A model generated the notes under the pieces. It was not told the DNA's origin, made no database searches, and saw only the letters and a list, made by a program, of their open reading frames with translations. Shown piece by piece: positions 20,381 to 59,300 of a DNA stretch of 64,000 nucleotides. Each line of letters starts with the position of its first letter. Positions within the stretch are counted from its first letter, which is position 1. The stretch lies in the NCBI RefSeq assembly GCF_000497245.1, contig NZ_AWTC01000002.1:186001-250000 (forward strand). Direction: 5' to 3'. A program made the translations under genes and the position numbers. The stretch comes from Sporolactobacillus laevolacticus DSM 442 (GTDB lineage: Bacteria; Bacillota; Bacilli; Bacillales; Sporolactobacillaceae).

Positions 20381-20693
20381 GTAAGAAGGATCTTCTGCTA
20401 GAAACGTGCACGTCCTGTGCACAACGCAGAAGTCACCGCATCCTGCGGAAGTTCTGTGTCAACTTGCTTTTCCGCTCCTCACGTATTAACAGGGGAACTT
20501 CAACTAATAACGCGTACGTCCTGTACGCAACGTTGAAGTCACTACATCCTGTAGAAGTACGCTCCGGGGCTCAAAGCTGCGTTTCCTTGACCTTCTTGCG
20601 ACGCCCAGGATGGGCTAGTGCAGGCGTTGCAACAGGATGTTGCGTTCTTAGCCTGTAAACCTATCCTTTGTCCTCCTTTCGAACAGACTCTAA
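20381..20693 (+). mobile_element. Modular hairpin repeat, copy A (three cassettes, left end diverged)
   Basis: Shares backbone with copies at 50518 and 58959: GTGTCAACTTG, CTCACGTATTA, TACGCTCC, AAGCTGCGTTTCCTTGACCTTC and the right end TTTGTCCTCCTTTCGAACAG. Cassette 1: CTTCTGC/GCAGAAG (20392-20432) enclosing GTGCAC-GTCCT-GTGCAC, then CCGCA-TCC-TGCGG (20436-20448). Cassette 2: CTTCAAC/GTTGAAG (20498-20538) enclosing GCGTAC-GTCCT-GTACGC, then CTACA-TCC-TGTAG. Cassette 3 (inverted): GCCC-AGGAT-GGGC (20603-20615) and CAGGC/GCCTG enclosing GCAACA-GGA-TGTTGC. It ends at the pdhD terminator. Confidence 0.85.
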
Positions 20694-20727
20694 AAGACCT
20701 GAGCAAGAAAATTTGCTCAGGTCTTTT
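20692..20727. terminator. pdhD terminator (bidirectional)
   Basis: 15-bp arms AAAAGACCTGAGCAA and TTGCTCAGGTCTTTT around GAAAAT, with T tracts on both strands, 28 bp after the pdhD stop. Confidence 0.88.
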
Positions 20728-20754
20728 TTCATTTAATTATTTATTTACATCTTA

Positions 20755-22164
20755 TTACTTGGCGATATGGATTGGCTTTCCCAGTACCACTTCCGCAGCT
20801 TCCATCGCAATCTCACCAAGCGTAGGGTGAGCGTGAATGGTCAAGGCAAGGTCTTCAACCGTCATTCCGGATTCAATCGCTAACCCGAATTCAGCAATCA
20901 TATCACTCGCGCTTGCCCCGACAATTTGCGCACCGAGCACCAACCCATCTGACGCGCGAGAAACAATCTTTAAAAATCCGTCAGGCTCACCAAGTGAAAG
21001 TGCGCGGCCGTTCGCTGCAAATGGGAACTGACCGGTTTTCACTTCATAGCCTTCTTTAACTGCTTCTTCTTCAGATAAACCGACAGATGCGATTTCAGGA
21101 TCAGAGAAAACAACCGCCGGCATCGCACGATAATCAATCTCCGATGCCTCACCGCTGATGGCTTCAGCAGCTACTTTTCCTTCATATGATGCTTTATGCG
21201 CAAGTGCAAGACCTGAGACGATATCGCCAATCGCATATATTTTATCCGATGTCGTTTTTCCTTGCTTGTCAACTTTTATCAGGCCACGTTCAGTGACTTC
21301 GACGCCTGCTAAATCTAGGCCAAGATCCTTTGTATTCGGGCGACGTCCTACCGTTACCATAACATAATCAGCGTCAAAAACTTGCGCTTTGCCTTTGACC
21401 TCTGCAGTAACCGCGACACCGCTGTCTGTCTCTTCTACACCCTTCGCAAGTGCGTTCGTATAGATTGTCACGCCCTTTGCTTTGAGTTTCTTCTTAACAG
21501 GAGCAATCAAACGCTTCTCAAAAGCAGGCAGAATGGAGGGCGTGCCTTCGAGAATCACAACTTCGGTGCCAAATCCCGCAAATGCTGAACTGAGTTCAAT
21601 GCCAATATAGCCGCCTCCAATAACGACCAGTTTCTTAGGAACTTCTTTCAGAGCGAGTGCACCCGTAGACGAGAGGACACGGTCACTCCATTTGAATCCT
21701 GGAATCTCAATTGGACTCGAACCGGTTGCGATGATGCAATGATTGAATTTGTAACGTGACGACTCATACCCATGATTGACACGTACAACATCAGTGTCTA
21801 CAAACAATGCTTCACCCTCGACAAGTTCGATGCCGTGTGCTTTGAAGAGTCCCTTAACACCGCCTGTCAGGCGGTCAACCACCTGGCTTTTCCACTCCTG
21901 AACTTTTAGAAAATCAACGGTTACATGTTCAGCTTTAATTCCATAAGCTTCGGAATGATCCATTTGTTCGTAACGGTGACTTGCTGAAATTAGAGCTTTC
22001 GACGGAATGCATCCGACATTCAGACAAACTCCTCCGACATGCTCTTTTTCAATGACGATAACACTTTGTCCGAGCTGTGCGGCGCGTATCGCTGCGACAT
22101 ATCCACCGGGCCCCGCTCCAATGACAACCGTATCCACTTCTGTGGTAAATTCCCCTACTACCAT
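20755..22164 (-). CDS. pdhD: Dihydrolipoyl dehydrogenase (E3 of pyruvate dehydrogenase)
   Basis: 469 residues. FAD-linked disulfide oxidoreductase that reoxidises dihydrolipoyl-E2 with NAD+. FAD loop [15 protein letters not shown] (about residues 14-28), redox cysteines in [18 protein letters not shown]-binding [16 protein letters not shown] and the C-terminal catalytic HAHPTLGE are all present. Last gene of pdhABCD; its start lies directly behind the pdhC stop. Confidence 0.97.
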
Positions 22165-22166
22165 CT

Positions 22167-23447
22167 CTACCCCTCCAAAATAAGGCGTTGCGGATCAAAT
22201 AACAACCTTTTTATTTTGTTCATTGCCCTTTGAGCTGTCGCGCCGTCAATCAGACGGTGATCAAAACTCATAGACAGAGCAAGCATAGGTGCGGCAACAA
22301 TCTGGCCATCACGAACGATGGCTTTTTCAGATATTCTTCCGACTCCGAGAATGGCGGATTCAGGTTGGTTAATTACTGGCGTAAACCATTGCCCGCCTTC
22401 CGAACCGATATTGGAAATTGTACACGTTCCGCCTCTCATATCCTCTGAGGTCAACTTTCCGGCACGCGCTTTTTCTGCAAACTGCTGGATGTCTTGAGCA
22501 ATCTCATACATCGATTTGCCTTCTGCATGCTTGATGACTGGAACAACCAGTCCGGCATCCGTATTCGTGGCAATGCCGATGTTATAATACTTTTTATAAA
22601 TAATTTCCTGATGCTCTTCATCAAGTGAGGCATTAATTATTGGATATTCCTTCAACGCGGCAACTAACGCCTTTACAATATATGGGAGATAGGTTAGTTT
22701 TACACCAATCTCCTGTGCTTCCTCTTTAAATAACTTTCGATGTGCAACCAATCTTGATACATCGACATCGTCCATCAATGTCACATGAGGAGCCGTCTGC
22801 TTTGAATGTGCAGTTGCCTTTGCAATCGCTCTCCGGATGCCGATAAATTTCTCTCTTGTTTCCAAGCCTTGAATTTCAGAAATTCCGTCACGATCTTCAT
22901 GAGACTCTTCTAATTCTGACGATTTTTCCGTCACTTGCTGCGCTTCTGTTTCAGCAGGCGCTGCAAGCATTCTGTCGATATCTTCCTTAAGCACTCGACC
23001 ATTACGTCCGGTACCTTTAACCAATTGAATATTGACAGCTTTATCTCTCGCATATTTCCGTACGGATGGCATAGCAATTACTAAATCACCGGTTTTCGCT
23101 CCGGATTGTTCTTTCACTTCAGCAGTTGATCCTTCCTTTTCATCTAGTTGATCAGCCGCCGCGAATTGAATATCTTCTTCTTGAGCAGTGTCCGCTTCAT
23201 TATCCGCGCCATCCGCCTGCAATGTGATAACTACAGTGCCGACCTCAACAATCTGGCCTTCATCGGCATTAAGTTCCAGTACCTTACCATTGACAGGCGA
23301 AGGAATCTCGACAACCGCTTTATCATTTTGAACCTCCGCTAAGGTATCATCTTCACGGATGGTGTCTCCTGGTTTCACAAACCATTTAAGTATTTCGCCT
23401 TCATGAATACCTTCACCGATATCCGGCAATTTAAACAAATAGGCCAA
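22167..23447 (-). CDS. pdhC: Dihydrolipoamide acetyltransferase (E2 of pyruvate dehydrogenase)
   Basis: 426 residues: one lipoyl domain (residues 1-80, lipoyl-Lys in [11 protein letters not shown]), an acidic linker, the peripheral subunit-binding domain (about 125-165, [20 protein letters not shown]), and the catalytic acetyltransferase domain with [14 protein letters not shown] (catalytic His) near the C-terminus. Transfers acetyl from lipoamide to CoA and forms the complex core. A 105-bp gap separates it from pdhB. Confidence 0.97.
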
Positions 23448-23552
23448 CGGCGTTCACTCTCCTTCACTTCCTTGGACATAACTTATTACGGTTACATTAA
23501 ACTATATCCGCGATTTTTTTTCGCAGACCAAGGAACCAATCATTATTCATGA

Positions 23553-25636
<2,084 letters not shown>

Positions 25637-25682
25637 TCAGTATGCATGTTTTCTTTCATTTTTAACAAAGAGACAAATGTCA

Positions 25683-25697
25683 CTAAAGCGCTTTCAG
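25683..25697. promoter_or_regulatory. Possible CcpA cre site in the pdhA leader
   Basis: CTAAAGCGCTTTCAG contains the palindrome AAAGCGCTTT and matches the cre consensus WTGNNARCGNWWWCAW except at the first TG. It lies between promoter and gene, a roadblock position. Confidence 0.4.
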
Positions 25698-25819
25698 TAA
25701 AAAGGTTTTTCCAAAAAATCAAGGATCCTGTCGGCTTCCTTCCATTTTCCATTCCAAACAACCGCGGAAGCCTAACCGATTAGAGCAGTTAAGTGAATAT
25801 AGCGCTTCACTAAACTCAG

Positions 25820-25847
25820 TTTATAATACCTCGTTCAATGAAGTCAA
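25820..25847 (-). promoter_or_regulatory. sigma-A promoter of pdhABCD
   Basis: Minus strand TTGACT (25847-25842), 16-bp spacer, TATAAA (25825-25820). The 190-nt leader also contains a GGCTTCC/GGAAGCC hairpin near 25734-25770; I see no known riboswitch in it. Confidence 0.65.
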
Positions 25848-25998
25848 ACTAAAGGCTTACACCTTGTCGATGGAAAGCAAGAACGTTTTAAACGGTTCAG
25901 TAAACATTCGATGATTTTAATGATACACTATAAGCAGAGATAATAATAAGTGACCAGACGTTCTGTTCACTTGAAAGGTTGAAGGAGTGGCTCTATTC

Positions 25999-26556
25999 AT
26001 GATTACGATGGAAGATATTATTAGGGAAGGTAATCCCATTCTTAGACAAGTTGCTAAAGATGTGCCGCTTCCGGCTTCCGATGAGGAAAAGGATACACTG
26101 AGAAAAATGCTGGAATTCCTTAAAAACAGCCAAAACGAAGAAATCGCGAAAAAGTATGGCTTGCGCGCAGGTATAGGCATCGCTGCGCCTCAAATCGCTA
26201 TGAGTAAACGAATGATCGCGTTGTATTTAGATGATGAGAATGGCAAGCATTATGAGTACATGCTGTTCAATCCAAAAATCATCAGCCATTCGGTTGAAAA
26301 TACGTATCTAGAAGGCGGCGAAGGATGCCTGTCAGTTGACAGAGATGTTCCCGGATTTGTACCTCGCCATGCCCGGGTTAAGGTAAAAGCATTTGATATC
26401 GACGGACACCCTGTAACATTGAGGTTGAAAGGCTATCCTGCCGTAGCGATTCAACATGAAATCGATCATTTGGACGGTATTCTATTTTATGACCATATAA
26501 ATAAAGATGATCCATTTAAAATACCTGATCACGTGGCTGAAGAAGATGTCTACTGA
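25999..26556 (+). CDS. def: Peptide deformylase
   Basis: 185 residues. Metal-dependent removal of N-formyl from nascent proteins. All three motifs are intact: GIGIAAPQ (about 59-66), EGCLSVD (Cys ligand) and QHEIDHLDG (two His ligands and catalytic Glu). Closest to the B. subtilis YkrB/DefB type, which also begins MITMENI. AAGGAG precedes ATG 25999. Transcribed away from the pdh operon; the ykyA gene found between def and pdhA in B. subtilis is missing. Confidence 0.95.
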
Positions 26557-26600
26557 TCAATAGAAAAGAGCCGCGGATCTGCGGCTCTTTTCTATTGATC
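26555..26600. terminator. Terminator after def (bidirectional)
   Basis: Perfect 20-bp arms (26555-26574 and 26581-26600) around GGATCT, containing AAAAGAGCCGC/GCGGCTCTTTT. The first arm starts at the def stop codon. Confidence 0.9.
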
Positions 26601-26611
26601 TAATTTTATTA

Positions 26612-26701
26612 CAGGCTGTTCGAAAAGGAGGACAAAAAGGAACAAGATTAACAGATGATCCTTCTTACTTTTTCCCAGACTTTGCAAACACCCTCTATTA
26701 C
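26612..26701 (+). mobile_element. Modular hairpin repeat, copy D (deletion derivative)
   Basis: About 90 bp keeping both ends of the family: CTGTTCGAAAAGGAGGACAAAAAGG on the left and GATCCTTCTTAC, TTTTTCCCAGACTTT, CACCCTCTATTA on the right, with the whole cassette-bearing centre missing. Its terminal TTA is the stop codon (TAA, minus strand) of the adjacent HAD gene. Confidence 0.75.
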
Positions 26702-27486
26702 AGTAAGCCTATTTGTTTGAGCCCATGATAAATACCATCTTGATGAACAGAAGTTGTTACTAAGTCGGCGGATTTTTTCGCAGCATCCACTGCGTTCCCC
26801 ATCGCAATTCCGGTACCAACATAGGAAAGCATTTCGACATCGTTATTCCCGTCTCCGAATGCACATGCATCTTCCGGCTTCAAATTCAGCTTATTCAACA
26901 ATTGTTTGATTCCTGCAGCCTTCGATCCATTGCCCGGGATTACATCGACACCGAATTCATGCCAACGCACATAACGAAAGACATCCAGGGGGTCCTGATT
27001 AAGAAAATCCGCGTCTTCATTTGCTGAATAGAAAAGTAAACCTTGATACACGTCGTAATTTTCATAAAAGTGAGGGTCACGATCCGGAAAAGACATCGGC
27101 AATTTTAAACTTGCAATACTTTCACGTGCTTTTTCAGAAGCATCACCATTCATTTTCATTTGTGCTTCATTAACTAAGGCTAGTGACCAGCCTAAATCTT
27201 CCGTACGCGAGATGAGCGCTTTCAAAACTGATCTTGACAATGGATTCTTATATACAGGAATGTCTTCATGGACAACGTAAGATCCATTGAAGCTGACAAA
27301 CGAGTGAATATCCAAGCGACGTCTTAGTTCTTGAAACATGTACGGAGAGCGGCCCGTTGCGATCGCGGTGATCACGCCTTTGCTCTGAAGCGTATGTATC
27401 GCCTCTGCAGTTGAATCCGGTACTGATTTATTCTGGTCGTAAAGCGTATCATCAATATCAAAAAACACTATTTTTGGTGCAGACAA
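26698..27486 (-). CDS. ykrA: Cof-type HAD phosphatase, YkrA-like
   Basis: 262 residues, HAD superfamily class IIB. Motif I FFDIDDTLYD (about residues 8-17, nucleophile and acid Asp), motif II IATGRS, the Lys of GNGSKAAG (motif III) and motif IV FGDGNNDVEML. Likely a sugar-phosphate or flavin-related phosphatase; substrate unknown. TTG start with AGGAGG nine bases upstream. Neighbour of def, matching the ykrA-ykrB order. Its stop codon falls inside repeat copy D. Confidence 0.87.
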   Translation of the reverse strand: MSAPKIVFFDIDDTLYDQNKSVPDSTAEAIHTLQSKGVITAIATGRSPYMFQELRRRLDIHSFVSFNGSYVVHEDIPVYKNPLSRSVLKALISRTEDLGWSLALVNEAQMKMNGDASEKARESIASLKLPMSFPDRDPHFYENYDVYQGLLFYSANEDADFLNQDPLDVFRYVRWHEFGVDVIPGNGSKAAGIKQLLNKLNLKPEDACAFGDGNNDVEMLSYVGTGIAMGNAVDAAKKSADLVTTSVHQDGIYHGLKQIGLL

Positions 27487-27754
27487 CTCATAATTCCTCC
27501 TTAAAAGTCATGTTGCAACCCCTATCTTGCAATAACATAATTCATTATACCAGTTTAATGCTTAAAGTTTGTTGTGCAAGTATGAATTTTTTCGGTTGGT
27601 TAAAGCTAACATTGACCATTGATTGTTGCGAAATGATATGGATTATTGATCAATTCTTCTGAATTAAGCATGAAACGGAGCTAGACAGTGAAAAAGCTCG
27701 GCATTTCATATATAATGAACTTTAGAATCAATTTTTTTGGAGGGAGCATGTATT

Positions 27755-27964
27755 ATGATTTATAAAGTATTGTATCAGGCATCAAAAGATGAGGTTCCGG
27801 TTCGCGAACAGACGGAAACGCTTTATCTTGAAGCCAGCGATGTGCGCGATGTGCGCAAAAAACTTGCAGACAAGCCATATAATGTTGAATTTATTCAGCC
27901 TTTGACCGGAAAATTTCTCGATTATGAAAAAAAGTCTGCCGAATTTAAATTGGAGAAGATATAA
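27755..27964 (+). CDS. rpoY: RNA polymerase epsilon subunit
   Basis: 69 residues, starting [20 protein letters not shown]; the Firmicute-specific small RNAP subunit (YkzG). AGGGAG precedes ATG 27755; a -10-like TATAAT is at 27711-27716. It sits immediately ahead of rnjA, the conserved arrangement, with only four bases between stop and the rnjA ATG. Confidence 0.94.
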
Positions 27965-27968
27965 ACAT

Positions 27969-29675
27969 ATGAAATTTGTTAAAAACCATCAAACTGCCGT
28001 ATTCGCCCTTGGCGGACTGGGCGAAATCGGCAAAAACACCTATGCTGTTCAGTTTCAGGATGAAATTATCGTTATCGATGCCGGTATTAAATTTCCTGAA
28101 GACGAGCTGCTGGGCATCGATTACGTTATCCCTGACTACAGCTATTTGGTGAAAAATGCTGATAAAATTAAAGGCTTGTTCATCACACACGGACATGAAG
28201 ATCATATCGGCGGCGTCCCTTATTTGCTTCGCGCAGTCAATATTCCGATTTATGCAGGCAAACTGGCTGCAGGATTGATTCGCAACAAACTCGATGAACA
28301 CAATCTTCTGAGGCAGACGGTTATTCATGAAATCACAGAAGACGATGTAATCAAGTTTCAGAAAACATCCGTCAGCTTCTTCAGAACAACCCACAGCATT
28401 CCTGATTCTTATGGTGTGGTCGTCAAAACACCACAGGGGAATATTGTTGAAACAGGGGACTTTAAATTTGACTTTACGCCGGTTGGCGGTCAGATAGCCA
28501 ATTTGACAAAGATGGCGGAAATTGGTAAAGAAGGCGTTCTCTGCCTCATGTCGGACAGCACAAACGCTGAGGTTCCCGGTTTCACAATGACCGAACGCGA
28601 AGTCGGCGATAATATCAAAGACATCTTCCGAAAAGTAAACGGCCGAATAATATTCGCCACATTCGCCTCAAATATTCATCGTCTTCAGCAAGTAGTGGAT
28701 GCTTCTGTTGAAACAAACCGCAAAATCGCCGTGTTTGGGCGGAGCATGGAAGCGGCTATTACCATCGGCGAGGAACTGGGCTATGTCAAAGCGCCTAAAG
28801 ACACGTTTATAGATCACCAACAGCTGAACCATCTTCCAGATCAGCAAGTAACGATTCTGTGTACCGGCAGCCAAGGCGAACCAATGGCGGCGTTGTCTCG
28901 AATCGCAAATGGCACTCACCGTCAGATTCAGATCCAGCCAGGCGACACAGTTATTTTCTCTTCTTCCCCGATACCAGGAAATAAGGTCAGCATAAATCGG
29001 ACAATTAACCAACTCTATAGAGCTGGTGCCGACGTCATCCATGGCAAACTAAGCAATATCCATACCTCAGGACACGGCGGACAAGAAGAAGAAAAACTGA
29101 TGCTTCGTTTACTCAAGCCGAAATTTTTTATGCCGATTCACGGTGAATACCGTATGCTGAAACAGCATGTCGAAACGGCACACGCTTGCGGCATCCCTTA
29201 TGACCATTCGTTTATCATGAACATCGGCGATGTGCTGGCACTTGATCAAAATTCAGCCACCGTTACCGGAAAAATTCCATCCGGCTCAGTATATATTGAT
29301 GGCAGCGGAATCGGTGATATTGGCAACATTGTGCTTCGTGACCGCAAGATTCTTTCCGAGGAAGGATTGGTCATTGTCGTTGTGAGCGCTGACATTGAAG
29401 CACACAAGATTTTGGCTGGTCCGGATATTATCTCACGTGGATTCGTCTACATGCGTGAATCCGGTGATCTTATTAACGAAGCTCAAAGCCTTCTCGCTTC
29501 CCGTCTTCAAGAAGTGATCCAGCGTGATAAATTGCAATGGTCCGAAATCAAAAGCGAAGTCACAGATATTTTGGCGCCATTCCTTTATGAGCGTACAAGG
29601 CGCAAACCAATGATTCTACCGATTATCATGGAAGTTGATGAAAAAGCAAGCAAGCAGGTAGAAAGCAACAAATAA
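27969..29675 (+). CDS. rnjA: Ribonuclease J1
   Basis: 568 residues. Metallo-beta-lactamase/beta-CASP RNase with 5'-3' exonuclease and endonuclease activity, central to mRNA turnover and 16S rRNA maturation. The metal-binding HGHEDHIGG (about residues 74-82), [10 protein letters not shown], beta-[17 protein letters not shown], and [10 protein letters not shown] with MPIHGEYRM are intact. The C-terminus is about 13 residues longer than B. subtilis RNase J1, ending in a lysine/glutamate-rich tail. Start [12 protein letters not shown] matches the B. subtilis N-terminus. Confidence 0.97.
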
Positions 29676-29699
29676 CTCTTACTCTCAATGAATAAATAA

Positions 29700-29741
29700 A
29701 GAGGCACAGCAAACAGTTTAATCTGTCCGCTGTGCCTTTTA
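29700..29741. terminator. Terminator between rnjA and the CydB-like gene
   Basis: GGCACAGC (29703-29710) pairs with GCTGTGCC (29729-29736), with an inner ACAG/CTGT pair, then TTTTAAATT. Confidence 0.8.
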
Positions 29742-29776
29742 AATTATTCAAATAAGATATTTTGAGCTCGATGTCA

Positions 29777-30799: not shown

Positions 30800-30987
30800 G
30801 ATCTGCTTCTCTCCAGTCCGCGAGGCAAAGTCTCTTTATAGAACCCGCCTCATTATTATACCAAAGTGCAGGCGAACTTCATTAACTTTACATCACATGT
30901 TTTTCGAAAGCCTGTATTGCATGTTAACGTTAATACAGCCCCTGATAAATGGACACGTATAATCGCTTCCAATCAACTTTAAAAATA

Positions 30988-50494: not shown

Positions 50495-50517
50495 GACCTC
50501 TCCCTCCTTCCTTTATT

Positions 50518-50678
50518 GCGGATGTTCGAAAAGTCCGGGAAAAATTACCGGCGAATCTCTGTGTCAACTTGCTTTTCTGCTCCCTCACGTATTATTCGCA
50601 TACGCTCCGGTGCTCAAAGCTGCGTTTCCTTGACCTTCTTACTCCTTTTTGTCCTCCTTTTCGAACAGACTCTTATAG
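50518..50678 (+). mobile_element. Modular hairpin repeat, copy B (minimal backbone, no cassettes)
   Basis: About 160 bp: left end GATGTTCGAAAAGTCCGGG, then GTGTCAACTTGC, CTCACGTATTA, TACGCTCC, GCTGCGTTTCCTTGACCTTC, right end TTTTGTCCTCCTTTTCGAACAGACTCTTATAG read in order. It contains none of the hairpin cassettes of copies A and C, so it defines the backbone and the insertion points. Its terminal TTA is the stop codon (TAA) of the regulator gene at 50673. Confidence 0.88.
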
Positions 50679-51275: not shown

Positions 51276-51296
51276 ATATTCACATGCTCCTTTCAA

Positions 51297-52391
51297 TCAT
51301 GTTAGCGGCATTGAAAAAAGAAGCGTTGTTCCATTTGCATTACTTAATATATTGACGGTACCACCAACCAATTTCATTCGCTCGCGCATTGTGTGCATGC
51401 CGCTTCCAGCAGAAGGGACCTCACCTATACCGATCCCATCGTCTTTGACTTCGCAAATCAGCTGATGATGATCGAGTTTACTATTGATCAGGCAATGTTT
51501 TGCCGAACTGTGCCTCCCCACATTAGTGATTGCTTCTCGAACGGCGAGGGTTAGCATTGTTTCATCAGCAGTTTTGATTGGCGGCCATTTATCTGGAGAA
51601 CAGACCTTTACAGATATCCCTTTTGCCTCAAGAAAGGATTTCGCTTCGGTCAGTTCCTTTGGCAATGATGAATGATGCCTGATAGAAGAAACAATTTCTC
51701 GCGTCTGGCGGAGCGCAGTACGCGTAATTTTTTCTATTTCATCAATTTCTTTCTGTGCTTTGTCAACATCATTCACAATAAGTCTCGATGCCAGTTCACT
51801 TTTAAGAATAATCATGGTCAGTGTATGTCCTAATGTGTCATGTAGATCACGCGCGAAACGGTTGCGTTCCTTTTCTTTTACTAGAGCGACGATTTGTTCA
51901 TTAGCCTGATCCAGTTGATGGTGCAGGTTCTTAGACTTCTGATGCAGGAAAATAGCAATTGGAAAGCCGGCTTGCAAAAGCAAAAAGAAAAATTGGTAAT
52001 GCCGCGTAAATGCCAAAGGGTTCCCAGTAGTAACCAACGAAACGATCATATAAGCGGTGACAAGCCCCGAAACCCCGATGATCAAATGCAGTGCCCGCTC
52101 AATATAGCCAAAAAGAAGCACTATGCAAATGCCATAAAACATCATAGACGGGTCAATCATCACTGCGGGGACGACCAATACTGCGACCCCAAGTAAAAAG
52201 TGTAAAAGAAGGGACAGATACTCGACCCAATACATCTGTCGAAAGACATATAAGAGCACGAGACCGGCCACAGTTCCAATCACTTGATCTGAAAAATGGC
52301 TGGAAGTCCATACATTATAAAAATATTGAGAGAATGTGAGAAGTATCCATATATAGGGGTAAGGGCCCGTCGATCTCGGAAACAGCTTCAT
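51297..52391 (-). CDS. DesK-type sensor histidine kinase
   Basis: 364 residues: five to six N-terminal membrane helices (residues about 10-145), then HisKA_3 box FARDLHDTLGHTLTMI (phospho-His, about residue 190), and a HATPase domain with EAITNVGRHS and DDGIGIG. Multi-pass sensors of this class respond to membrane state or membrane-active compounds. GAAGGGAG precedes ATG 52391. Next to a cognate regulator and an ABC transporter, comparable to the B. subtilis lnrJKLMN (linearmycin) arrangement. Confidence 0.9.
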   Translation of the reverse strand: MKLFPRSTGPYPYIWILLTFSQYFYNVWTSSHFSDQVIGTVAGLVLLYVFRQMYWVEYLSLLLHFLLGVAVLVVPAVMIDPSMMFYGICIVLLFGYIERALHLIIGVSGLVTAYMIVSLVTTGNPLAFTRHYQFFFLLLQAGFPIAIFLHQKSKNLHHQLDQANEQIVALVKEKERNRFARDLHDTLGHTLTMIILKSELASRLIVNDVDKAQKEIDEIEKITRTALRQTREIVSSIRHHSSLPKELTEAKSFLEAKGISVKVCSPDKWPPIKTADETMLTLAVREAITNVGRHSSAKHCLINSKLDHHQLICEVKDDGIGIGEVPSAGSGMHTMRERMKLVGGTVNILSNANGTTLLFSMPLT

Positions 52392-52494
52392 TCCGGCACT
52401 CCCTTCCAATCCACACTCAATTTTCTTTTCTCTAGCATACCCGCAATCCGTTTCCCAGTAAATAGCCCATCATTGATGGGCAAGTTAACACATT

Positions 52495-53253
52495 TCACTG
52501 ATCAGCACTTATCTCTCTTCTTATGTCTATTAATTTATCCCACTCTTCAACAAGCGTTCTACAAAAAGAATCTTGTTGTTGTCTGCATGAGCGTATCCAC
52601 TCTTGTTCATCTCCGCTCACCACGATCTTCCCTTTAGATAATAGATGTACATGGTAATGAGCAATACCTTTTAAATCTTGGATATTGTGCGTGACGATAA
52701 CAATCGTACATTTGTTTTTCTCCTGCAATTTGCGTAACAATCCGGTGATTTGCTTTTCGGATGAGACATCAATTCCTGCTGTCGGTTCATCAAAAAGATA
52801 AAGAGACTTATCGAGCAGGCAATAAAGTAAAACCATGAACCAGCGCCGCTCCCCCGGTGACATTTTCCCATATTGAATTGTCCAGAGATACACAATTTTT
52901 TCCATTGATTGCGGATTTCCTTCCAACAGCGTTTTAAATAAATAGGGAGAAAGATCTCGCTTTCTATACTGACCGCTCACGCAAAGTATTAACTCTGCAA
53001 GCTCTTTACCTTTGATCGTACTTAGCAGTGGCACACCTTGAATATGATAAAGAATCTCATTTCGCGGAAAAGGATCTTCAATGCTACAATCGACTTCAAT
53101 TAATCCTGAAAGGATATCCAGGAGTGTTGTTTTTCCCTCACCATTCCTGCCAAGTAGAAAATGAATTTGTCCGGGAACTAAGTTAAGTGATAACTCGTTA
53201 AAAATCAGGCGGTCATTATCGGGATAACGAAAACTTAGATGACTCAGTTTCAT
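52495..53253 (-). CDS. ABC transporter ATPase
   Basis: 252 residues: Walker A LGRNGEGKTTL (about residues 35-45), signature MSPGERRWFM (a non-canonical LSGGQ replacement), Walker B LYLFDEPTAGID and switch IVTHNI. The signature change is unusual for exporters but Gly-Glu is kept. Ten bases separate it from the permease gene, so the two form one transporter. Confidence 0.88.
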   Translation of the reverse strand: MKLSHLSFRYPDNDRLIFNELSLNLVPGQIHFLLGRNGEGKTTLLDILSGLIEVDCSIEDPFPRNEILYHIQGVPLLSTIKGKELAELILCVSGQYRKRDLSPYLFKTLLEGNPQSMEKIVYLWTIQYGKMSPGERRWFMVLLYCLLDKSLYLFDEPTAGIDVSSEKQITGLLRKLQEKNKCTIVIVTHNIQDLKGIAHYHVHLLSKGKIVVSGDEQEWIRSCRQQQDSFCRTLVEEWDKLIDIRREISADQ

Positions 53254-53262
53254 TAGTACACC

Positions 53263-53985
53263 TCAATTCCGGAATATGGGTAATGTTTTTAGTTTTTTCA
53301 AGGAAAAAATGCCGACCAAGAAGTAAACAGTAGTCACAGTGGTGAGAAGAGCGATCTGAAGTAAAGTTGCAGTTGCTTCCCCTGTTACTAGTCGTGAGAC
53401 ACGATCAATATAATCAATTGGACTGACGAATACAAAAGCCATATTCGATTCGTTAATAGATAGAAAAATAAAAAAGAAAATCAATATATTCATTAGTGGA
53501 GTGACTGTCTCCGGCCTGATCCTCCACGCGGCAAAATTGAGAAATAGCGAAAACACAGGAAAACTGCAGATGAGAACAATGAGAAGTGATTGCCCAATCA
53601 AGCTGAAAAGTGGAAGCAAAAACAGTGCACTGCATAGAACATCCAAAAGCAAAACAGAGAATATTAGCAGAAGAAATTGAGCGATAAATTCGGCAAAGAT
53701 AATCGACCACGGACTGCCAGCAATAAAAAGAAACAACTTAATAAACTGTTCTTCTCTAAGAATAACTAGGGAAGGACCGCTTCCAGTTAATGCGTAGAGC
53801 ACCACCATATAACCTATCCAATAGAAAATAGTATTTATAATCGTATGCGTATCCGTCTTTTGCAGGATTTGCTCCCTCATGCTGTAGATTATTGATCCGA
53901 TCGGAACCCCGAGTGTAAAAATAAAATTGATCTTATAATACATTTTTGTGTGAATAAAATGTTTAACAAGGGGTATAGCATGCAT
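53263..53985 (-). CDS. ABC-2-like permease, six membrane segments
   Basis: 240 residues, very hydrophobic, with six predicted membrane helices (about residues 20-35, 52-70, 92-125, 133-152, 164-185, 210-232) and a short conserved-looking cytoplasmic LREEQFIKLFLF. No named family beyond ABC-2-type permeases. First gene of the permease-ATPase-kinase-regulator cluster. Confidence 0.75.
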   Translation of the reverse strand: MHAIPLVKHFIHTKMYYKINFIFTLGVPIGSIIYSMREQILQKTDTHTIINTIFYWIGYMVVLYALTGSGPSLVILREEQFIKLFLFIAGSPWSIIFAEFIAQFLLLIFSVLLLDVLCSALFLLPLFSLIGQSLLIVLICSFPVFSLFLNFAAWRIRPETVTPLMNILIFFFIFLSINESNMAFVFVSPIDYIDRVSRLVTGEATATLLQIALLTTVTTVYFLVGIFSLKKLKTLPIFRN

Positions 53986-54162
53986 AATGGTTCATCACTT
54001 CTTTCCATTCGACTCTATTCCATAATAGGGTAGCTGAATTGATTAGAAGCGAAAAGTCATTGGAGTCACCATATTCATGTGACAACTGTCATGCGCTCGA
54101 CAACATGCATCCTCCTCACTGCTCAATAGCCGTTCACTTTTAGAAGGTTGAAATAATGTAAC

Positions 54163-54194
54163 ACAAAAAAACACGAGCAGTTTAGCCCGTGTTT
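54163..54194 (-). terminator. cwlO-type gene terminator
   Basis: Minus strand AACACGgGC/GCtCGTGTT (54193-54170) followed by TTTTTGTG. Confidence 0.85.
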
Positions 54195-54224
54195 TGAGTA
54201 ATCTTTTATTTTGTTTAAAGTCAA

Positions 54225-55466
54225 TCAGTTAAGAATTCGTCGAACAACGCCACGGAAGTGCGATTTCCAGTAAGGGTTGTCCATGCTGACTACAGCAACC
54301 CCTGTACTGCTTTGTGATCCGATAAAGCGTCCGCCTCCAAGATAGATGCCAACATGTCCATTTGTTTTATATGTATCAAAGAATACGAGATCACCAGGTT
54401 GTGCGGAGCCGAAGCTGACGGCACTGCCTTGGCTAACCAAAGCGTCTGTGCTACGTCCTACACCAATTCCGTTTGCGGCGAATGCGGCGTGGACAAAACC
54501 TGAGCAGTCAAACTGTCCTGTAGATGGATTGGATGCCCCAAACACGTAGGTTGAACGTCCAATAAAACGATTGCCATACCCAAGGATACCTGATACTCCA
54601 CCAGTTGCGACTGACGCAGATAGCCCAACTGGCTGCGTCTGACCAAAATCACTAGTACCCGAATTATTGGAGCTGCTTGAGTTGCCTGAGTTGCTTGAAT
54701 CGTTCGAGTTGCTTGGATTATTATTTGAAGCGTCAGATGGGGAGAAAGAAACCGGCTTGATCGAAGCACGCTTGAGATCATCTGCGGCATTAGTCAAAGC
54801 AACTAACCGTTGTGAAACACTGTCTTGTTTAGTCTTTAGTGCATCTGCGGCTATTTTCTTCTTTTCTTGAAGTGCAACGACTTCAGATAACGTCTTCTTC
54901 AAATTTTCGAGACGAGCAACATTAGCTGCCTGTTTACTTTCGACACTTGCTTTCTTTTCTTTAACTGCCAGTTGGTCATTTTTTTGATCGGTAATGATTT
55001 TCTGATCCTGATTCGTAATTGTTGTCAATGCGAATGTACGGTCAATAAAATCGCCAAAGTTCTTAGAACCAAGTAACACGTCCAGATAATTTACTGATCC
55101 GCCGTTCTTGTAAATAGAAACCAAGCGATCATTTAGTATTGCCTTGCGCTTCTCAATACGCTGTTCGATATCCGAAACTTCTGCTTTCAAAGCGTTGATC
55201 TTATCATTTGTTTGATTGATCTCAGCCTGCCCGTCACTAATTTTGCCAGTCAATTGCAACTGTTTTTTATTCATGCTTGTCAGTTCGTCTTGGATAGCTT
55301 GTTGCTGTTGAGTTAGTTGTGCTTTCAACGACCTTTGGGCAGCTGTTTCTTTATTAAGATTGCTCAATGATGGTGATGCATATGTAACCGAAGGTGCTAC
55401 AGAAGTATATGTCAGTCCGAACGTCAGTGCCAGTGTCACGGTCGCGTTTTTCTTATTCATTTTCAT
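54225..55466 (-). CDS. CwlO-type D,L-endopeptidase (NlpC/P60)
   Basis: 413 residues: signal peptide (about residues 1-31), long coiled coil (about 40-235, PcsB/CwlO N-domain), an Asn/Ser-rich linker (about 245-275) and a C-terminal NlpC/P60 domain with catalytic Cys in FDCSGFVHAAF and His in NGHVGIYLGGGRFIG. Cuts the D-Glu to diaminopimelate bond of cell-wall peptides. Coiled coil plus P60 is the CwlO design, activated by FtsEX and essential with LytE for elongation in B. subtilis. GGGGAGGA is 12 bases before the chosen ATG. Confidence 0.88.
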   Translation of the reverse strand: MKMNKKNATVTLALTFGLTYTSVAPSVTYASPSLSNLNKETAAQRSLKAQLTQQQQAIQDELTSMNKKQLQLTGKISDGQAEINQTNDKINALKAEVSDIEQRIEKRKAILNDRLVSIYKNGGSVNYLDVLLGSKNFGDFIDRTFALTTITNQDQKIITDQKNDQLAVKEKKASVESKQAANVARLENLKKTLSEVVALQEKKKIAADALKTKQDSVSQRLVALTNAADDLKRASIKPVSFSPSDASNNNPSNSNDSSNSGNSSSSNNSGTSDFGQTQPVGLSASVATGGVSGILGYGNRFIGRSTYVFGASNPSTGQFDCSGFVHAAFAANGIGVGRSTDALVSQGSAVSFGSAQPGDLVFFDTYKTNGHVGIYLGGGRFIGSQSSTGVAVVSMDNPYWKSHFRGVVRRILN

Positions 55467-55571
55467 GATCGGCCTAGTTCCTCCCCAAAACAATCATTCT
55501 CTTTTTTTCACTGTTTTTCTATTTAACATTCTATAAGTAATCTACTAATTTTTATCTTTATCGACTTTTTA

Positions 55572-55577
55572 ATTATA
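55572..55577 (-). promoter_or_regulatory. -10 box of the cwlO-type gene (extended)
   Basis: Minus strand TGC-TATAAT, about 105 bp ahead of the start codon; the -35 is weak. Confidence 0.6.
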
Positions 55578-55675
55578 GCACCGTGCCTTTCGTAACTGAT
55601 ATTAAGCTTATATGTCTTATTGAAATATAAATGTAACATTAGCTCGATTTCACACGAATACCAACTTTTATCCTT

Positions 55676-55692
55676 TGTAATCATTTTGTAAT
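55676..55692 (+). promoter_or_regulatory. WalR-type box
   Basis: TGTAAT-CATTT-TGTAAT, an exact fit to the WalR (YycF) consensus TGTWAH-N5-TGTWAH. It lies in the gap between the cwlO-type gene (minus) and the CcdC-like gene (plus), about 100 bp upstream of the former's -10. cwlO is a known WalR target in B. subtilis. Confidence 0.65.
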
Positions 55693-55902
55693 TTAAATAA
55701 ATCTTTAAGTTAATTACTTAATTTCGTCAATGAAACAGCGGAATAGGACAATTCAAACGAGACATACACTAACAGAGTATTAGAAAGCTTGGCTTCGACA
55801 AGCGGCCAGTGTAGAAACTCCAGTATTGTATCCGACCACTTACATCATCCGCTGAGAACTGATGCTTTCCTTATAGTGAAAAAAATGAGCGAGGTGATTT
55901 CT

Positions 55903-56409
55903 ATGTTTCTAGTCATGGGTTCAGTCCTGCTGATTGCTGTTTTTATTAATCAGCTTAGAGAAAAACCTTTAACCGGCAAATTATATCGACAGCCTCTTGC
56001 TCTTTTAATATGTGCAGGCGTCGCGCTTTCCACCATGCCCGTCCTGCCATTCATTGATTGGTTCATGATGATCGCCACTCTCTGCTTCTCATTTGGATTA
56101 GGCTTGCTCCAAGGACGCTTCACCCCGCTGTTACATCGCGACGGCGCATGGTATCTAGCGGGTTCCATTATGTCGGTTCTCATCTGGTTTCTGTCGATCC
56201 CGATTCGTTTCTCATTAAAATTTATTTCAATTTATTATTTATCACTGACACCATCTTTGAATGGATCCTCTAGCTTCATTATTTATTTTATTTTTATCGC
56301 AGGATTTCTTCTTGGTCGTTACAGTATGCTCCTCTTCAGATATCCTTCGCTGCTTAAAAATGTGGGCAAAAATGAACAAAAATTGAAACGGCTCCGCGAA
56401 GTGCGTTGA
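55903..56409 (+). CDS. CcdC-like membrane protein (DUF1453 type)
   Basis: 168 residues with four to five membrane helices and the pattern GLLQGRFTPLLHRDGAWYLAGSIMSVLIWFLSIPIRFSLK read in order, resembling the CcdC/DUF1453 group (cytochrome c biogenesis-associated in name, function unproven). AGGTGA supports ATG 55903; an earlier in-frame ATG lacks a site. Monocistronic, with a terminator at 56442. Confidence 0.55.
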   Translation: MFLVMGSVLLIAVFINQLREKPLTGKLYRQPLALLICAGVALSTMPVLPFIDWFMMIATLCFSFGLGLLQGRFTPLLHRDGAWYLAGSIMSVLIWFLSIPIRFSLKFISIYYLSLTPSLNGSSSFIIYFIFIAGFLLGRYSMLLFRYPSLLKNVGKNEQKLKRLREVR

Positions 56410-56441
56410 GACTTGCAAATCGAACTGATAGAAAACCTCAT

Positions 56442-56474
56442 AAAAAGCAGCCGATATGGTCGCTTTTCTTTTTT
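56442..56474 (+). terminator. Terminator of the CcdC-like gene
   Basis: AAAAGC-aGCC-gatat-GG-tc-GCTTTT followed by CTTTTTTG. Confidence 0.65.
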
Positions 56475-56728
56475 GTTTTGCTAAAAGATGGATCATAATC
56501 AGTCATTCTAAATCAGGTAAAATATAATTCGTGAGATAGCGTTTTTAACAACAAAATATATTCCACTTCTTTCCTATAATATATGTGCAATTCTTTACAT
56601 AACAGGCAATTTGCCGTTTATTCGTAATCAGCTATTTTTTTAAAATGCATATCCGGCTTGACTTTTGAGTGAAAAGATATAGAATTATTGAAGGTTTTCG
56701 GATGTCTATTTTTTTACACAATTTTTAC

Positions 56729-56758
56729 ATGACGGTATCTAATCCATTATGATATAAT
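56729..56758 (+). promoter_or_regulatory. Promoter of the lipoteichoic acid synthase gene
   Basis: ATGACG (56729-56734), 18-bp spacer, TATAAT (56753-56758), about 90 bp ahead of the start. A second TATAAT occurs near 56575. The rest of the 430-bp gap shows nothing else I can name. Confidence 0.5.
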
Positions 56759-56846
56759 TTAGGTTTTTTATGTACACACTTGATTATGCAGAAATTAATA
56801 ACCTTATACGATCAATTTTCGTTTGATTCCAGGAGGTTGAACAAAC

Positions 56847-58832
56847 TTGAAGCACCTATTAACTGTGGGGCATCGTTTTCTTAACAAAAAATATGCGCTA
56901 TTTTTGCTCACAGTCGTCCTATTCTGGCTTAAGACCTACTTCGTTTATTTGACTCAATTCAGCCTCGGCGTAAATGACAAGATGCAGCAGTTCCTGCTGT
57001 TTGTCAACCCGCTGAGCTCTGCGCTTTTATTTCTTGGGATTGCCGTTATCTTTAAAGGACGATTGCAGCAGTCTTTACTGATTTTCATTAACTTCATCCT
57101 TTCATTCTGGCTATATGCAAATGTCGTTTACTACCGCTTTTTCAATGACTTCATTACCTTCTCGACAATGACCCAGTCAACAGGAAACGCCGGCGATTTA
57201 GGCGGCAGTGTCCTCTCACTCATGAAAGTTTACGACTTTTTATTCTTTGCTGATACATTGATCGTTTTTGGACTTGTCGTCTTTAAAGTTGTAAAACCGG
57301 TTGCTGAACGCTGGAACATTCGCACTATTTTTACGGTGTTTGTTTCTGCCATCATGATCTTCATTGTCAATCTAAGTTTGGCTGAGACTGATCGACCGGA
57401 ATTGCTTAGCCGAACTTTTGACCGAAATTATATTGTTAAGTATTTAGGCGCGTATAACTTCGCCATCTACGATACGATACAGAACGCTCGCTCCAACGCT
57501 CAGCGGGCGATGGCTGACAGCAGCGATATTAATGATATTCAGAACTTCACAAAGTCAAATTTTGCCGAACCTAACCCAAAATATTACGCCAAAGGCAAGG
57601 GCATGAACGTGATCTATATATCACTTGAATCCCTGCAGAGTTTTATTATTAACTATAAAATGCCTGATGGCACAGAGGTGACGCCATTTCTTAATAAACT
57701 GACGACAGGCGCCGATAATACCACTTACTTTAAAAATTTCTTCCATCAGACAGGATCTGGGAAGACATCCGATGCAGAATTTATGATGGAAAATTCACTT
57801 TTCCCGCTTTCTCAAGGTCCTGTATTTCAGATGAAGGGATTTAACACATATCAGGCAGCTCCAGCAATAATGAATCAACGCGGATATGAAACAGCTGCAT
57901 TTCATGGAAATGTTAAATCGTTCTGGAATCGCGACCAGATGTATAAGTCACTTGGTTATGAACGTTTCTTTGACTCAAAGTATTACGATATGAGTGCAGA
58001 AAACACAAAGAACTACGGAATGAAAGACAAGCCGTTCCTTAAAGAAACGATGCCTTACCTAACGAACTTAAAGCAACCGTTCTATAGCAAATTGATTCTG
58101 CTATCCAACCATTTTCCGTTTGGGATGGACAAAGAAGATACAACCTTTCAACCAGGTAATTTTGGCGACAACGTTGTGAACAACTATTTTCAATCAGCAA
58201 ATTATATGGATCAAGCGATTGAACAGTTCTTCTCAGATCTGAAGAAAGCCGGTCTTTTCGACAAAACAATTGTGATTATGTATGGCGATCACTACGGCCT
58301 CTCTGAGAATCATAATGACGCCATGGCTAAAGTTCTTGGCAAGGATCAAATCACGCCTTTTGATAATGCACAACTTCAACGAGTACCATTGTTCATTCAC
58401 ATTCCAAAAATTGCTGGTGGTACTGTTTCCACATATGGCGGTGAGGTAGATGTGCGCCCAACATTAATGAGTCTGCTGGGAATCAATACAAAAAACTACA
58501 TTCAATTCGGAACAGATTTATTCTCTAAGCAGCATCGGCAAATTATCCCGTTTCGTAACGGCGACTTAATCACGAACAAGTACTCCATTATTGGCGGCGT
58601 AGTGTATGACAATAGCACCGGTAACAAAACAGATGCATCGCTTGGAAAGCCTTACGAAGCTCTTGCAAAGAAAATGCTTGATTACTCTGATAAGGTTATC
58701 TATGGAGACTTGCTTCGTTTTTATCAACCCAAGGCCTTTGTTCCACCTGATATATCAAAGATCAATTACAATACAGATCAAAAGATTTTGCCAGATTCTA
58801 ATTATGGGAAAACGAGTAAGACGAGTAAGTAA
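56847..58832 (+). CDS. ltaS: Lipoteichoic acid synthase (LtaS family)
   Basis: 661 residues: five N-terminal membrane helices (residues about 15-190) and an extracellular sulfatase-like domain (about 225-620). VIYISLESLQSF holds the first metal-binding Glu, GKTSDAEFM the catalytic Thr, and YGDHYGLS the Asp-His metal ligands near residue 476. It polymerises glycerol phosphate from phosphatidylglycerol onto a glycolipid anchor. TTG start behind AGGAGG. Whether it is the housekeeping or a stress (YfnI/YqgS-like) paralogue cannot be told from one copy. Confidence 0.94.
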   Translation: MKHLLTVGHRFLNKKYALFLLTVVLFWLKTYFVYLTQFSLGVNDKMQQFLLFVNPLSSALLFLGIAVIFKGRLQQSLLIFINFILSFWLYANVVYYRFFNDFITFSTMTQSTGNAGDLGGSVLSLMKVYDFLFFADTLIVFGLVVFKVVKPVAERWNIRTIFTVFVSAIMIFIVNLSLAETDRPELLSRTFDRNYIVKYLGAYNFAIYDTIQNARSNAQRAMADSSDINDIQNFTKSNFAEPNPKYYAKGKGMNVIYISLESLQSFIINYKMPDGTEVTPFLNKLTTGADNTTYFKNFFHQTGSGKTSDAEFMMENSLFPLSQGPVFQMKGFNTYQAAPAIMNQRGYETAAFHGNVKSFWNRDQMYKSLGYERFFDSKYYDMSAENTKNYGMKDKPFLKETMPYLTNLKQPFYSKLILLSNHFPFGMDKEDTTFQPGNFGDNVVNNYFQSANYMDQAIEQFFSDLKKAGLFDKTIVIMYGDHYGLSENHNDAMAKVLGKDQITPFDNAQLQRVPLFIHIPKIAGGTVSTYGGEVDVRPTLMSLLGINTKNYIQFGTDLFSKQHRQIIPFRNGDLITNKYSIIGGVVYDNSTGNKTDASLGKPYEALAKKMLDYSDKVIYGDLLRFYQPKAFVPPDISKINYNTDQKILPDSNYGKTSKTSK

Positions 58833-58834
58833 AC

Positions 58835-58866
58835 GAAAAAAAGCCCTTCACGGGGCTTTTTTTCGT
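58835..58866 (+). terminator. ltaS terminator
   Basis: AAAGCCC-TTCACG-GGGCTTT with T tract TTTTTTTCG, immediately after the stop. Confidence 0.9.
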
Positions 58867-58958
58867 CTATAATTCCTTTGGGTTCTCTTGAATGATTGTA
58901 CTTATTTTTTTAAACCTATCAATGGTTGCATAATAGAGTGCAACTTGTCTATGATAGT

Positions 58959-59300
58959 TATAGAGTCTGTTCAAAAAGGAGGACAAAAAGGGCCGAGGTC
59001 AGGCAAACCACCACGTCCTGTGGCATGCCTGACACTAGCCCGTCCTGGGCGTCGAAGATCAAGGAAACGCAGTTTCGAGCACCAGAGCGTACTTTCACAG
59101 GATGTGATGACTTCGACGTTACTCACAGGACGTGAGTGTCATTAGTCGAAGATCTCCTCTAATACGTGAGGAGCGTAGAAACAAGTTGACACAGAACTTC
59201 CACAGGATGTGGTGACTTCTGCGTTGCGCACAGGACGTGCACGTTATTAGCAGAAGATCCTTCTCGTCTTTTCCCGGACTTTTTGAACATCCTCTTATAG
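58959..59300 (-). mobile_element. Modular hairpin repeat, copy C (complete, three cassettes)
   Basis: About 340 bp with both terminal inverted repeats (TATAGAGTCTGTTCAAAAAG and its counterpart CTTTTTGAACATCCTCTTATA). Cassette 3: GTCAGGCA/TGCCTGAC (58998-59033) around CCAC-GTCCT-GTGG, then GCCC-GTCCT-GGGC (59038-59050). Cassette 2: TCACA-GGA-TGTGA (59095-59107), CTTCGAC/GTCGAAG (59111-59151) around ACTCAC-AGGAC-GTGAGT. Cassette 1: CCACA-GGA-TGTGG (59200-59212), CTTCTGC/GCAGAAG (59216-59256) around GCGCAC-AGGAC-GTGCAC. The order mirrors copy A, on the other strand. Confidence 0.9.

What the first reader, a model, noticed from the sequence alone, without database searches (positions are those of the whole stretch)
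20392..59256. Compensating stem changes with invariant GTCCT and TCC loops in the cassettes
Each cassette is a large hairpin followed by a small one. Large-hairpin outer stems are CTTCTGC/GCAGAAG, CTTCAAC/GTTGAAG and CTTCGAC/GTCGAAG. Inner stems are GTGCAC/GTGCAC, GCGTAC/GTACGC and ACTCAC/GTGAGT, always around GTCCT. Small hairpins are CCGCA/TGCGG, CTACA/TGTAG, TCACA/TGTGA and CCACA/TGTGG, always around TCC. Both sides of each stem change together while loops stay fixed. That is the mark of selection for structure, in RNA or in extruded DNA, or of copying by a hairpin-dependent process. On the opposite strand the loops read AGGAC and GGA.
Basis: seen in the sequence. Interest (0 to 1): 0.85.

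Follow-up and report, generated by a model that had tools for sequence, protein, structure and literature searches.

The report
Mobile paired hairpins inside transposon-like cassettes
The paired hairpins are copies of a known but unexplained RNA family of Bacillus relatives, here riding inside small transposon-like DNA elements; their two arms really do change together, but what they do is still open.

Summary
All six hairpin pairs in the window match Rfam RF01690 (Bacillaceae-1), one only just; the genome has at least 74 matches. On 101 units from many Bacillaceae, 15 of 17 pairs show two-sided changes; covariation score 0.596 against 0.156 shuffled. First, each cassette is a MITE-like element holding three units, the third inverted; an empty 155-base copy lies at 50518-50672. 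Second, copies of this element occur in all eight combinations of its three unit sites, with 5-base target duplications. Third, units also sit beside rRNA genes, UCCU-sense in the nine lineages found. The AGGAC/GGA loops on the other strand were proposed as CsrA sites in 2015. My tests of that conflict: csrA co-occurrence is weak, orientation to genes is random, and two related genomes, one with csrA, keep stems but lose GGA. Best reading: a mobile module selected as a hairpin while it spreads; CsrA binding possible, unproven. The family is known; the passages I read do not describe its carriage in MITEs.

The parts
20378..20690 (+). MITE-like cassette 1, left terminal repeat missing (left border approximate)
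   Evidence: right end GAACAGACTC at 20690 matches the family's right end; the left end lacks GAGGRTGTTC, and one search did not list this copy
20382..20449 (+). Bacillaceae-1 unit 1 of cassette 1
   Evidence: RF01690, 62.9 bits
20488..20555 (+). Bacillaceae-1 unit 2 of cassette 1
   Evidence: RF01690, 60.3 bits
20602..20667 (-). Bacillaceae-1 unit 3 of cassette 1, inverted
   Evidence: RF01690, 61.5 bits
50518..50672 (+). third copy of the MITE-like element in the window, no units
   Evidence: 155 bases, both terminal repeats, flanks match at 4 of 5 bases
58963..59294 (-). MITE-like cassette 2, complete
   Evidence: 332 bases, both terminal repeats; RNA fold z -5.96 on -, -5.30 on +
58958..58962 (.). 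5-base target duplication TTATA, left copy
   Evidence: matches 59295-59299 at 5 of 5
59295..59299 (.). 5-base target duplication TTATA, right copy
58988..59051 (+). Bacillaceae-1 unit 3 of cassette 2, inverted
   Evidence: RF01690, 35.8 bits, cut-off 35
59094..59161 (-). Bacillaceae-1 unit 2 of cassette 2
   Evidence: RF01690, 60.9 bits
59199..59266 (-). Bacillaceae-1 unit 1 of cassette 2
   Evidence: RF01690, 63.6 bits

Best explanation
The hairpin pairs are copies of the Bacillaceae-1 family (RF01690), which behaves as a small non-coding mobile hairpin module. In this genome the module rides in a MITE-like family of about 154 bases that has terminal inverted repeats and 5-base target duplications (shown). 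The element has three module sites, and every combination of filled and empty sites occurs (shown). Inferred: the element is moved by a transposase acting in trans, not identified here. Inferred: modules are gained, lost or exchanged as units, and the arms stay complementary because the module must form a hairpin, as RNA or single-stranded DNA, to be propagated or tolerated, not because each copy serves its neighbouring gene. Whether the conserved loop is read by CsrA on the AGGA strand stays open.
For: RF01690 in 6 of 6 window units and in 74 places of the genome (150 of 449 candidates scored, so a lower bound). 137 matches to the terminal repeat with up to 2 mismatches, against 4 for the reversed control pattern. 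Of 61 end-paired rows in 80 own-genome stretches, 18 have identical 5-base flanks and 14 match at 4 of 5, against 2.4 and 10.1 when flanks are shuffled among rows. Occupancy of those rows: none 35, 123 8, 12 7, 3 4, 23 3, 1 2, 2 1, 13 1 (by eye two 'none' rows are composites, one is a 121-base variant, and one '12' row, L038, is a nested array). Site 2 lies in the loop of a CGTAT/ATACG hairpin of the empty element. Paralogous rRNA spacers of genome G053 differ in which unit they hold and where: one site is filled in L267 and L269 and empty in L259, L262 and L265 (L271 is the same stretch as L262). Units show no orientation bias to tandem genes: 41 against 36 of 77 clusters, p 0.65.
Against: No transposase with these ends was found (none was searched for; a Y1 transposase gene is present, with no link shown). 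No orthologous empty chromosomal site was examined; the filled-empty comparisons are between paralogous copies, so recombination between elements could shuffle units without any mobility of the unit. The rRNA-linked units found are all in one orientation (9 of 9 lineages), which a pure DNA parasite would not show without selection on orientation. The large-loop core is kept in most units outside G052 and G090, which is more than a hairpin alone needs.
Confidence: 0.6

Rival explanations
1. The AGGA strand is a CsrA-binding RNA: two hairpins per unit present CAGGAYG loops that hold a CsrA dimer, so the dispersed copies titrate CsrA, as CsrB or RsmZ do in Gammaproteobacteria.
For: Proposed by Gardner and Eldai from motif matches on the reverse complement; the discoverers were unsure of the strand (PMC4333381, passages). 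The large-hairpin core CRTCCTG is CAGGAYG on the other strand (sequence). csrA is in this genome. RF01690 is in 145 of 285 csrA+ and 3 of 14 csrA- genomes (with filters that lose weak matches; p 0.052); in one genus in 2 of 3 csrA+ and 0 of 10 csrA- (p 0.038). A.C cells exceed G.T cells, 36 to 7, the direction expected if the AGGA strand is RNA.
Against: Each cassette has two units on one strand and one on the other. Orientation to genes is random. The rRNA-linked units found are all UCCU-sense. csrA-less G034 and G053 keep TCC in the large loop of the units read (2 of 2 and 6 of 6); csrA-less G052 has lost it in 10 of 10, but so have 6 of 7 units read in G090, which has csrA. The small loop has lost TCC in 32 of 109 distinct units. 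The unit lacks the R of the SELEX consensus RUACARGGAUGU, and 44 of 55 SELEX ligands had six-base loops (PMC7652899, passages). The A.C excess is mainly at helix ends; inside helices it is 7 to 5.
Confidence: 0.2
2. The UCCU strand is the functional RNA, originally in precursor rRNA (16S leader and 23S-5S spacer), and dispersed copies are offshoots.
For: In 9 of 9 lineages found with a unit next to rRNA genes the Rfam strand is the rRNA sense strand (Bacillus sp. FJAT-50079, Aquibacillus sediminis, Aquibacillus koreensis, Lysinibacillus telephonicus, Alkalihalobacillus sp. BA299, Salsuginibacillus kocurii, the genus of G301/G303/G305/G306, G053, G133). Three of six G303 leader copies show a T.G wobble on that strand.
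Against: Of 30 16S leaders taken without regard to units only one (L392, G133) holds a unit, and that one has a changed loop, so rRNA location is not general. The same orientation would follow if AGGA-sense hairpins in rRNA were harmful. The helix-end wobble excess points to the other strand.
Confidence: 0.1
3. REP-like element moved as single-stranded DNA by a Y1 (IS200/RAYT-type) transposase that needs the hairpin.
For: Hairpin dependence, dispersed copies in both orientations and no strand lean inside helices; one open and one broken Y1 transposase gene in the genome.
Against: The carrier element has terminal inverted repeats and 5-base target duplications, which IS200-type elements lack (recalled). 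Bacillus subtilis rings for RF01690 but not for Y1 in the control searches. No guide tetranucleotide was tested.
Confidence: 0.08
4. The paired changes are relatedness or chance, without constraint.
For: Inside this genome the changes reduce to a few sequence classes, and single-arm changes exist. The 101 units had been chosen to have at least 12 of 17 Watson-Crick pairs.
Against: On those units 0 of 500 shuffles reach the covariation score and no slid version comes near.
Confidence: 0.02

Closest known systems
Rfam RF01690 Bacillaceae-1 RNA
   Same: Both hairpins, the loop sequences and the order; all six window units score above the curated cut-off.
   Different: Rfam lists it as an sRNA gene; here it is a repeated module inside a MITE-like element, and its strand is unproven.
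CsrB/CsrC/RsmY/RsmZ CsrA-sequestering RNAs
   Same: GGA in hairpin loops in multiples; the core CAGGAYG also fits the CsrB repeat consensus (recalled).
   Different: Dispersed in both orientations, mixed strands within one cassette, no transcript shown, five-base loop without the R of the SELEX consensus.
TwoAYGGAY RNA (RF01731)
   Same: Two GGA-loop hairpins, also proposed as CsrA-binding (PMC4333381, passages).
   Different: Described from Clostridia, gut samples and Gammaproteobacteria; not compared by sequence here.
MITEs and modular repeats (bcr elements of Bacillus cereus, BOX of streptococci; recalled)
   Same: Short, non-coding, terminal inverted repeats and target duplication (MITE), optional internal modules (BOX).
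   Different: The modules here belong to a widespread structured RNA family that also occurs outside this carrier and in rRNA spacers.

Membership tests
RF01690 Bacillaceae-1 | Score above the curated gathering cut-off | tested here: met
   6 of 6 window units, 35.8 to 63.6 bits against 35
RF01690 Bacillaceae-1 | Two hairpins with covarying stems | tested here: met
   15 of 17 pairs with two-sided changes over 101 units
RF01690 Bacillaceae-1 | Expressed as an RNA | not testable with these tools
   no transcript data
MITE | Terminal inverted repeats in many copies | tested here: met
   137 matches, reversed control 4
MITE | Target site duplication | tested here: met
   18 of 61 rows identical over 5 bases, 2.4 expected
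MITE | Shares ends with an autonomous element in the genome | not tested
   no search for a transposase with these ends was made
CsrA-sequestering sRNA (CsrB/RsmZ type) | GGA in hairpin loops, several per RNA | tested here: met
   on the AGGA strand of a unit; small loops lack it in 32 of 109 relatives
CsrA-sequestering sRNA (CsrB/RsmZ type) | csrA in the same genome | tested here: inconclusive
   present here; 3 of 14 csrA-less genomes still carry RF01690
CsrA-sequestering sRNA (CsrB/RsmZ type) | All binding hairpins of an array on one strand | tested here: not met
   third unit inverted in both window cassettes; units elsewhere in both orientations
CsrA-sequestering sRNA (CsrB/RsmZ type) | Binds CsrA | not testable with these tools
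   needs gel shift or CLIP
REP/REPIN with RAYT | Y1 transposase in the genome | tested here: inconclusive
   a Y1 gene is present; no link to the units tested, and B. subtilis rings for RF01690 but not for Y1

The most novel reading that the evidence does not exclude
Bacillaceae-1 is not a classical sRNA but a nested mobile hairpin module that inserts at hairpin tips: in MITE-like elements, in other copies of itself (nested arms in L038, L045, L061) and in rRNA spacers. Its loop imitates CsrA sites on one strand, so that a selfish repeat also reshapes the CsrA network of Bacillaceae.
Probability: 0.25. Interest if true: 0.78.

Novelty: new member of a known kind. Interest (0 to 1): 0.45.

Why it matters
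RF01690 was published in 2010, and the only functional proposal that I found in my searches (CsrA-binding, PMC4333381) was called not yet validated by its authors. The present data turn it into testable alternatives: a mobile hairpin module, a CsrA decoy, or a precursor-rRNA element. Copies in rRNA operons with a known sense strand, a genus with patchy csrA and a genus with units that lost their loops give natural experiments. If the module inserts at hairpin tips, it would be an unusual case of structure-directed mobility.

Tried and rejected
GTCCT as an enriched word: not enriched in the window. Loop loss in csrA-less G052 as proof of CsrA recognition: rejected after units of sister genomes showed the same loss in G090, which has csrA. 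Those 40 control units score 48 to 61 bits, near or above the 33 to 55 bits of G052's units, so they are not strictly score-matched, and eight of them are rRNA-leader copies. In this genome alone the same count is 15 AGGA against 10 UCCU for cassette hits, 6 against 7 for the others. Intrinsic terminators as a wobble control: 58 hairpins with 13 G.T and 8 A.C in their outer four pairs, too weak to calibrate strand. Viral contigs: of 26 stretches only L379 and L382 hold real units, by eye. No match of cassette 2 in plasmid or phage records. 16S leaders of 30 genomes: one changed unit (L392), no AGGA-sense unit seen. The 23S-end matches in L160, L280 and L297 and the 16S match 6 kb from the unit in L189 were left out of the rRNA count as not adjacent; L363 and L364 were left out as chance matches.

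Full report
OBSERVATION. A scan of the window against Rfam 15 gives eight matches, six of them RF01690 Bacillaceae-1: 20382-20449 +, 20488-20555 +, 20602-20667 -, 58988-59051 +, 59094-59161 -, 59199-59266 -. Each cassette therefore holds three units, two in one direction and a third inverted. The whole genome (3.59 Mb, 32 contigs, draft) has 74 matches at E <= 0.001, 69 of them over the cut-off; 150 of 449 candidates were scored, so this is a lower bound. I fetched the surroundings of all 74. Some tandem copies in the draft are split by an N and may be assembly duplicates.

COVARIATION. I aligned 101 units, one per locus, out of 109 distinct units found in loci from genomes of the order and from named Bacillaceae contigs. 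Units had to fit the anchors TAA...C and AAC, to have NTCNT in both loops and at least 12 of 17 Watson-Crick pairs; the contigs were found by a pattern that fixes CRTCCTG and some stem letters, and loci from the Rfam searches are top-scoring ones. This choice favours paired units and kept large loops, but not two-sided change. 95.7% of cells pair, 15 of 17 pairs have two-sided changes, and the covariation score is 0.596 against a shuffled mean of 0.156 (0 of 500 reach it); slid structures give 0.029 to 0.087. This is not a tree-aware test. Inside this genome's cassettes, unit 1 (20 copies found) has one main outer stem and two main 5' inner arms, unit 2 (19 copies) two main outer stems; 11 of 507 cells are not Watson-Crick.

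WHAT THE CASSETTES ARE. The ends GAGGRTGTTCRAAAAGTCC and GAGTCTGTTCRAAAAGGAG occur as terminal inverted repeats: 71 forward and 66 reverse matches with up to 2 mismatches against 2 and 2 for the reversed control. Pairing the ends in 80 own-genome stretches (the window) gives 61 rows; by eye two are composites (L228 443 bases, L230 283 bases) and one is a 121-base variant. Elements without units are 153-155 bases (32 rows), and one lies in the window at 50518-50672. Elements with units fall into every combination of three sites: 123 8 rows, 12 7 (one, L038, is a nested array), 3 4, 23 3, 1 2, 2 1, 13 1. Flanks repeat over 5 bases: 18 rows identical and 14 with 4 of 5, against 2.4 and 10.1 when flanks are shuffled among rows. 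Cassette 2 (58963-59294) is flanked by TTATA on both sides; cassette 1 lacks its left repeat. In the empty element, site 2 is the loop of a CGTAT/ATACG hairpin, and its loop letters differ between copies. Site 3 compares as a clean insertion between GGGCCGAG and AAGATCAAGG (L046 against L060). Other units lie outside this element, among them two upstream of genes whose products begin MAGQIRLTPEELR, which look like WXG100 genes (L042, L047, family recalled), and some loci show nested arms, as if a unit had entered another unit (L038, L045, L061). A second kind of carrier surrounds several others.

rRNA. In G053, paralogous 23S-5S spacers differ: L267 and L269 hold a unit after CATTGGAA, where L259, L262 and L265 are empty, while these three hold units of two kinds next to 5S (L271 is the same stretch as L262; L267 and L269 also lack about 110 bases before the site). 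Among the loci fetched, units adjacent to rRNA genes were found in nine lineages (16S leader in Bacillus sp. FJAT-50079, Aquibacillus sediminis, Aquibacillus koreensis, Salsuginibacillus kocurii, genomes G301/G303/G305/G306 of one genus, and G133; 23S-5S spacer in Lysinibacillus telephonicus, Alkalihalobacillus sp. BA299 and G053), each time with the Rfam strand as rRNA sense (9 of 9, p 0.004). The division into lineages is mine; the two Aquibacillus units differ in sequence and are counted apart. Several were found by eye where the script's pattern missed them (L265, L333, L342, L392). The genus of G301-G306 is probably Halobacillus, since contig G300:C30 has the length of a Halobacillus campisalis contig. 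Of 30 16S leaders taken without regard to units only L392 (G133) has one, with a changed loop.

WHICH STRAND. Counting non-Watson-Crick cells on A1: A.C 36, G.T 7, others 38 of 1717 cells; by distinct helices A.C 23, G.T 7, p 0.005; without column 1, 18 to 6, p 0.023; away from columns 1, 2, 43 and 44, 7 to 5. A.C on the Rfam strand is G.U on the AGGA strand, so the ends of the helices lean to the AGGA strand and the interiors do not lean. Column 1 may not be a true pair (13 other mismatches). The Rfam model probably scores G.U on its own strand better, so sampling bias should run against this lean (inference). Orientation to tandem genes: 166 clusters, of which 26 at locus edges, 30 inside ORFs, 15 convergent, 14 divergent, 81 tandem; of 77 tandem clusters with one orientation 41 have the AGGA strand and 36 the Rfam strand as gene strand. 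Genes were taken as long non-overlapping ORFs, not annotations.

CsrA. Gardner and Eldai (PMC4333381, passages read) proposed in print that the reverse complement of Bacillaceae-1 binds CsrA. Tests here: csrA is in this genome. In 299 genomes of the order, RF01690 is in 145 of 285 with csrA and 3 of 14 without (p 0.052; related genomes are not independent, and the search filter loses weak matches). In the genus of G204, csrA is in 3 of 13, RF01690 in 2 of 13, both csrA+. The three csrA-less carriers: G034 (2 units read, large loops intact), G053 (6 units, large loops intact, 7% contamination), G052 (10 units, TCC lost in 10 of 10 large loops while most stem pairs stay). Forty units of the sister genomes with 48 to 61 bits: by my reading, TCC is kept in the large loop of 33 of 40; the seven without it are 4 of 4 from G090 and L308, L326, L329. 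Of three top-scoring G090 units, two also lack it. G090 has csrA, so loop loss is not explained by csrA loss. In the wider sample the small loop keeps TCC in 77 of 109 distinct units. SELEX ligands of CsrA have the consensus RUACARGGAUGU and mostly six-base loops (PMC7652899, passages); the unit reads CACAGGAYGTG, one base shorter.

KNOWN OR NEW. RF01690 comes from the 2010 comparative screen (PMC2864571, passages including a part of Table 1: RNA 'Y', cis-regulatory 'n'). BSGatlas counts 8 Bacillaceae-1 structures in B. subtilis that were in no earlier annotation resource (PMC8208703, one passage). Thirteen papers hold 'Bacillaceae-1' and five 'RF01690'; I read passages of four (PMC2864571, PMC8208703, PMC9029176, PMC4333381), none of which describes MITE carriage, modular occupancy or rRNA orientation; the others I did not open, and supplements were not read. 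Further searches listed no paper whose title or shown start of abstract does so.

VERDICT. Observation confirmed; interpretation partly supported. The hairpins are a known structured family, here carried as optional modules of a MITE-like element. The most likely account is a mobile hairpin module under selection as a hairpin, with CsrA recognition unproven and contradicted in part.

Noticed in passing
window 61867-62127 (-) and 3387-3502 (-): T-box leader (RF00230, 109 bits) and ylbH leader (RF00516, 64.3 bits).
   Followed up: no
L042 and L047 (G000 C4:14686, C5:128764): Diverged Bacillaceae-1 units upstream of two genes whose products begin MAGQIRLTPEELR (WXG100-like, recalled), UCCU strand as gene sense, with similar flanks; possible cis-acting leaders.
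   Followed up: partly
L035, L044, L048, L066 (also L034, L055 in part): A second kind of carrier around units (TATAAGTGTAAC ... GCCAAGTTT, with variation) different from the TGTTCAAAAAG element.
   Followed up: partly
L038, L045, L061: Nested arrays: several 5' arms in a row followed by several 3' arms with small hairpins, as if units had inserted into units.
   Followed up: partly
L260, L263, L266, L268, L270, L272-L276 (G052); L283, L292, L311, L322, L331, L332 (G090): Units of two related genomes whose stems are mostly kept but whose large loops have lost TCC, often reading RTCRT.
   Followed up: yes
empty copies of the element, e.g. window 50518-50672: The loop of the CGTAT/ATACG hairpin (site 2) varies among otherwise very similar empty copies; it may be an excision scar or simply unconstrained.
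   Followed up: no
L230 (G000 C16, 80492 to 80774): Two copies of the element side by side, one a 121-base variant.
   Followed up: no
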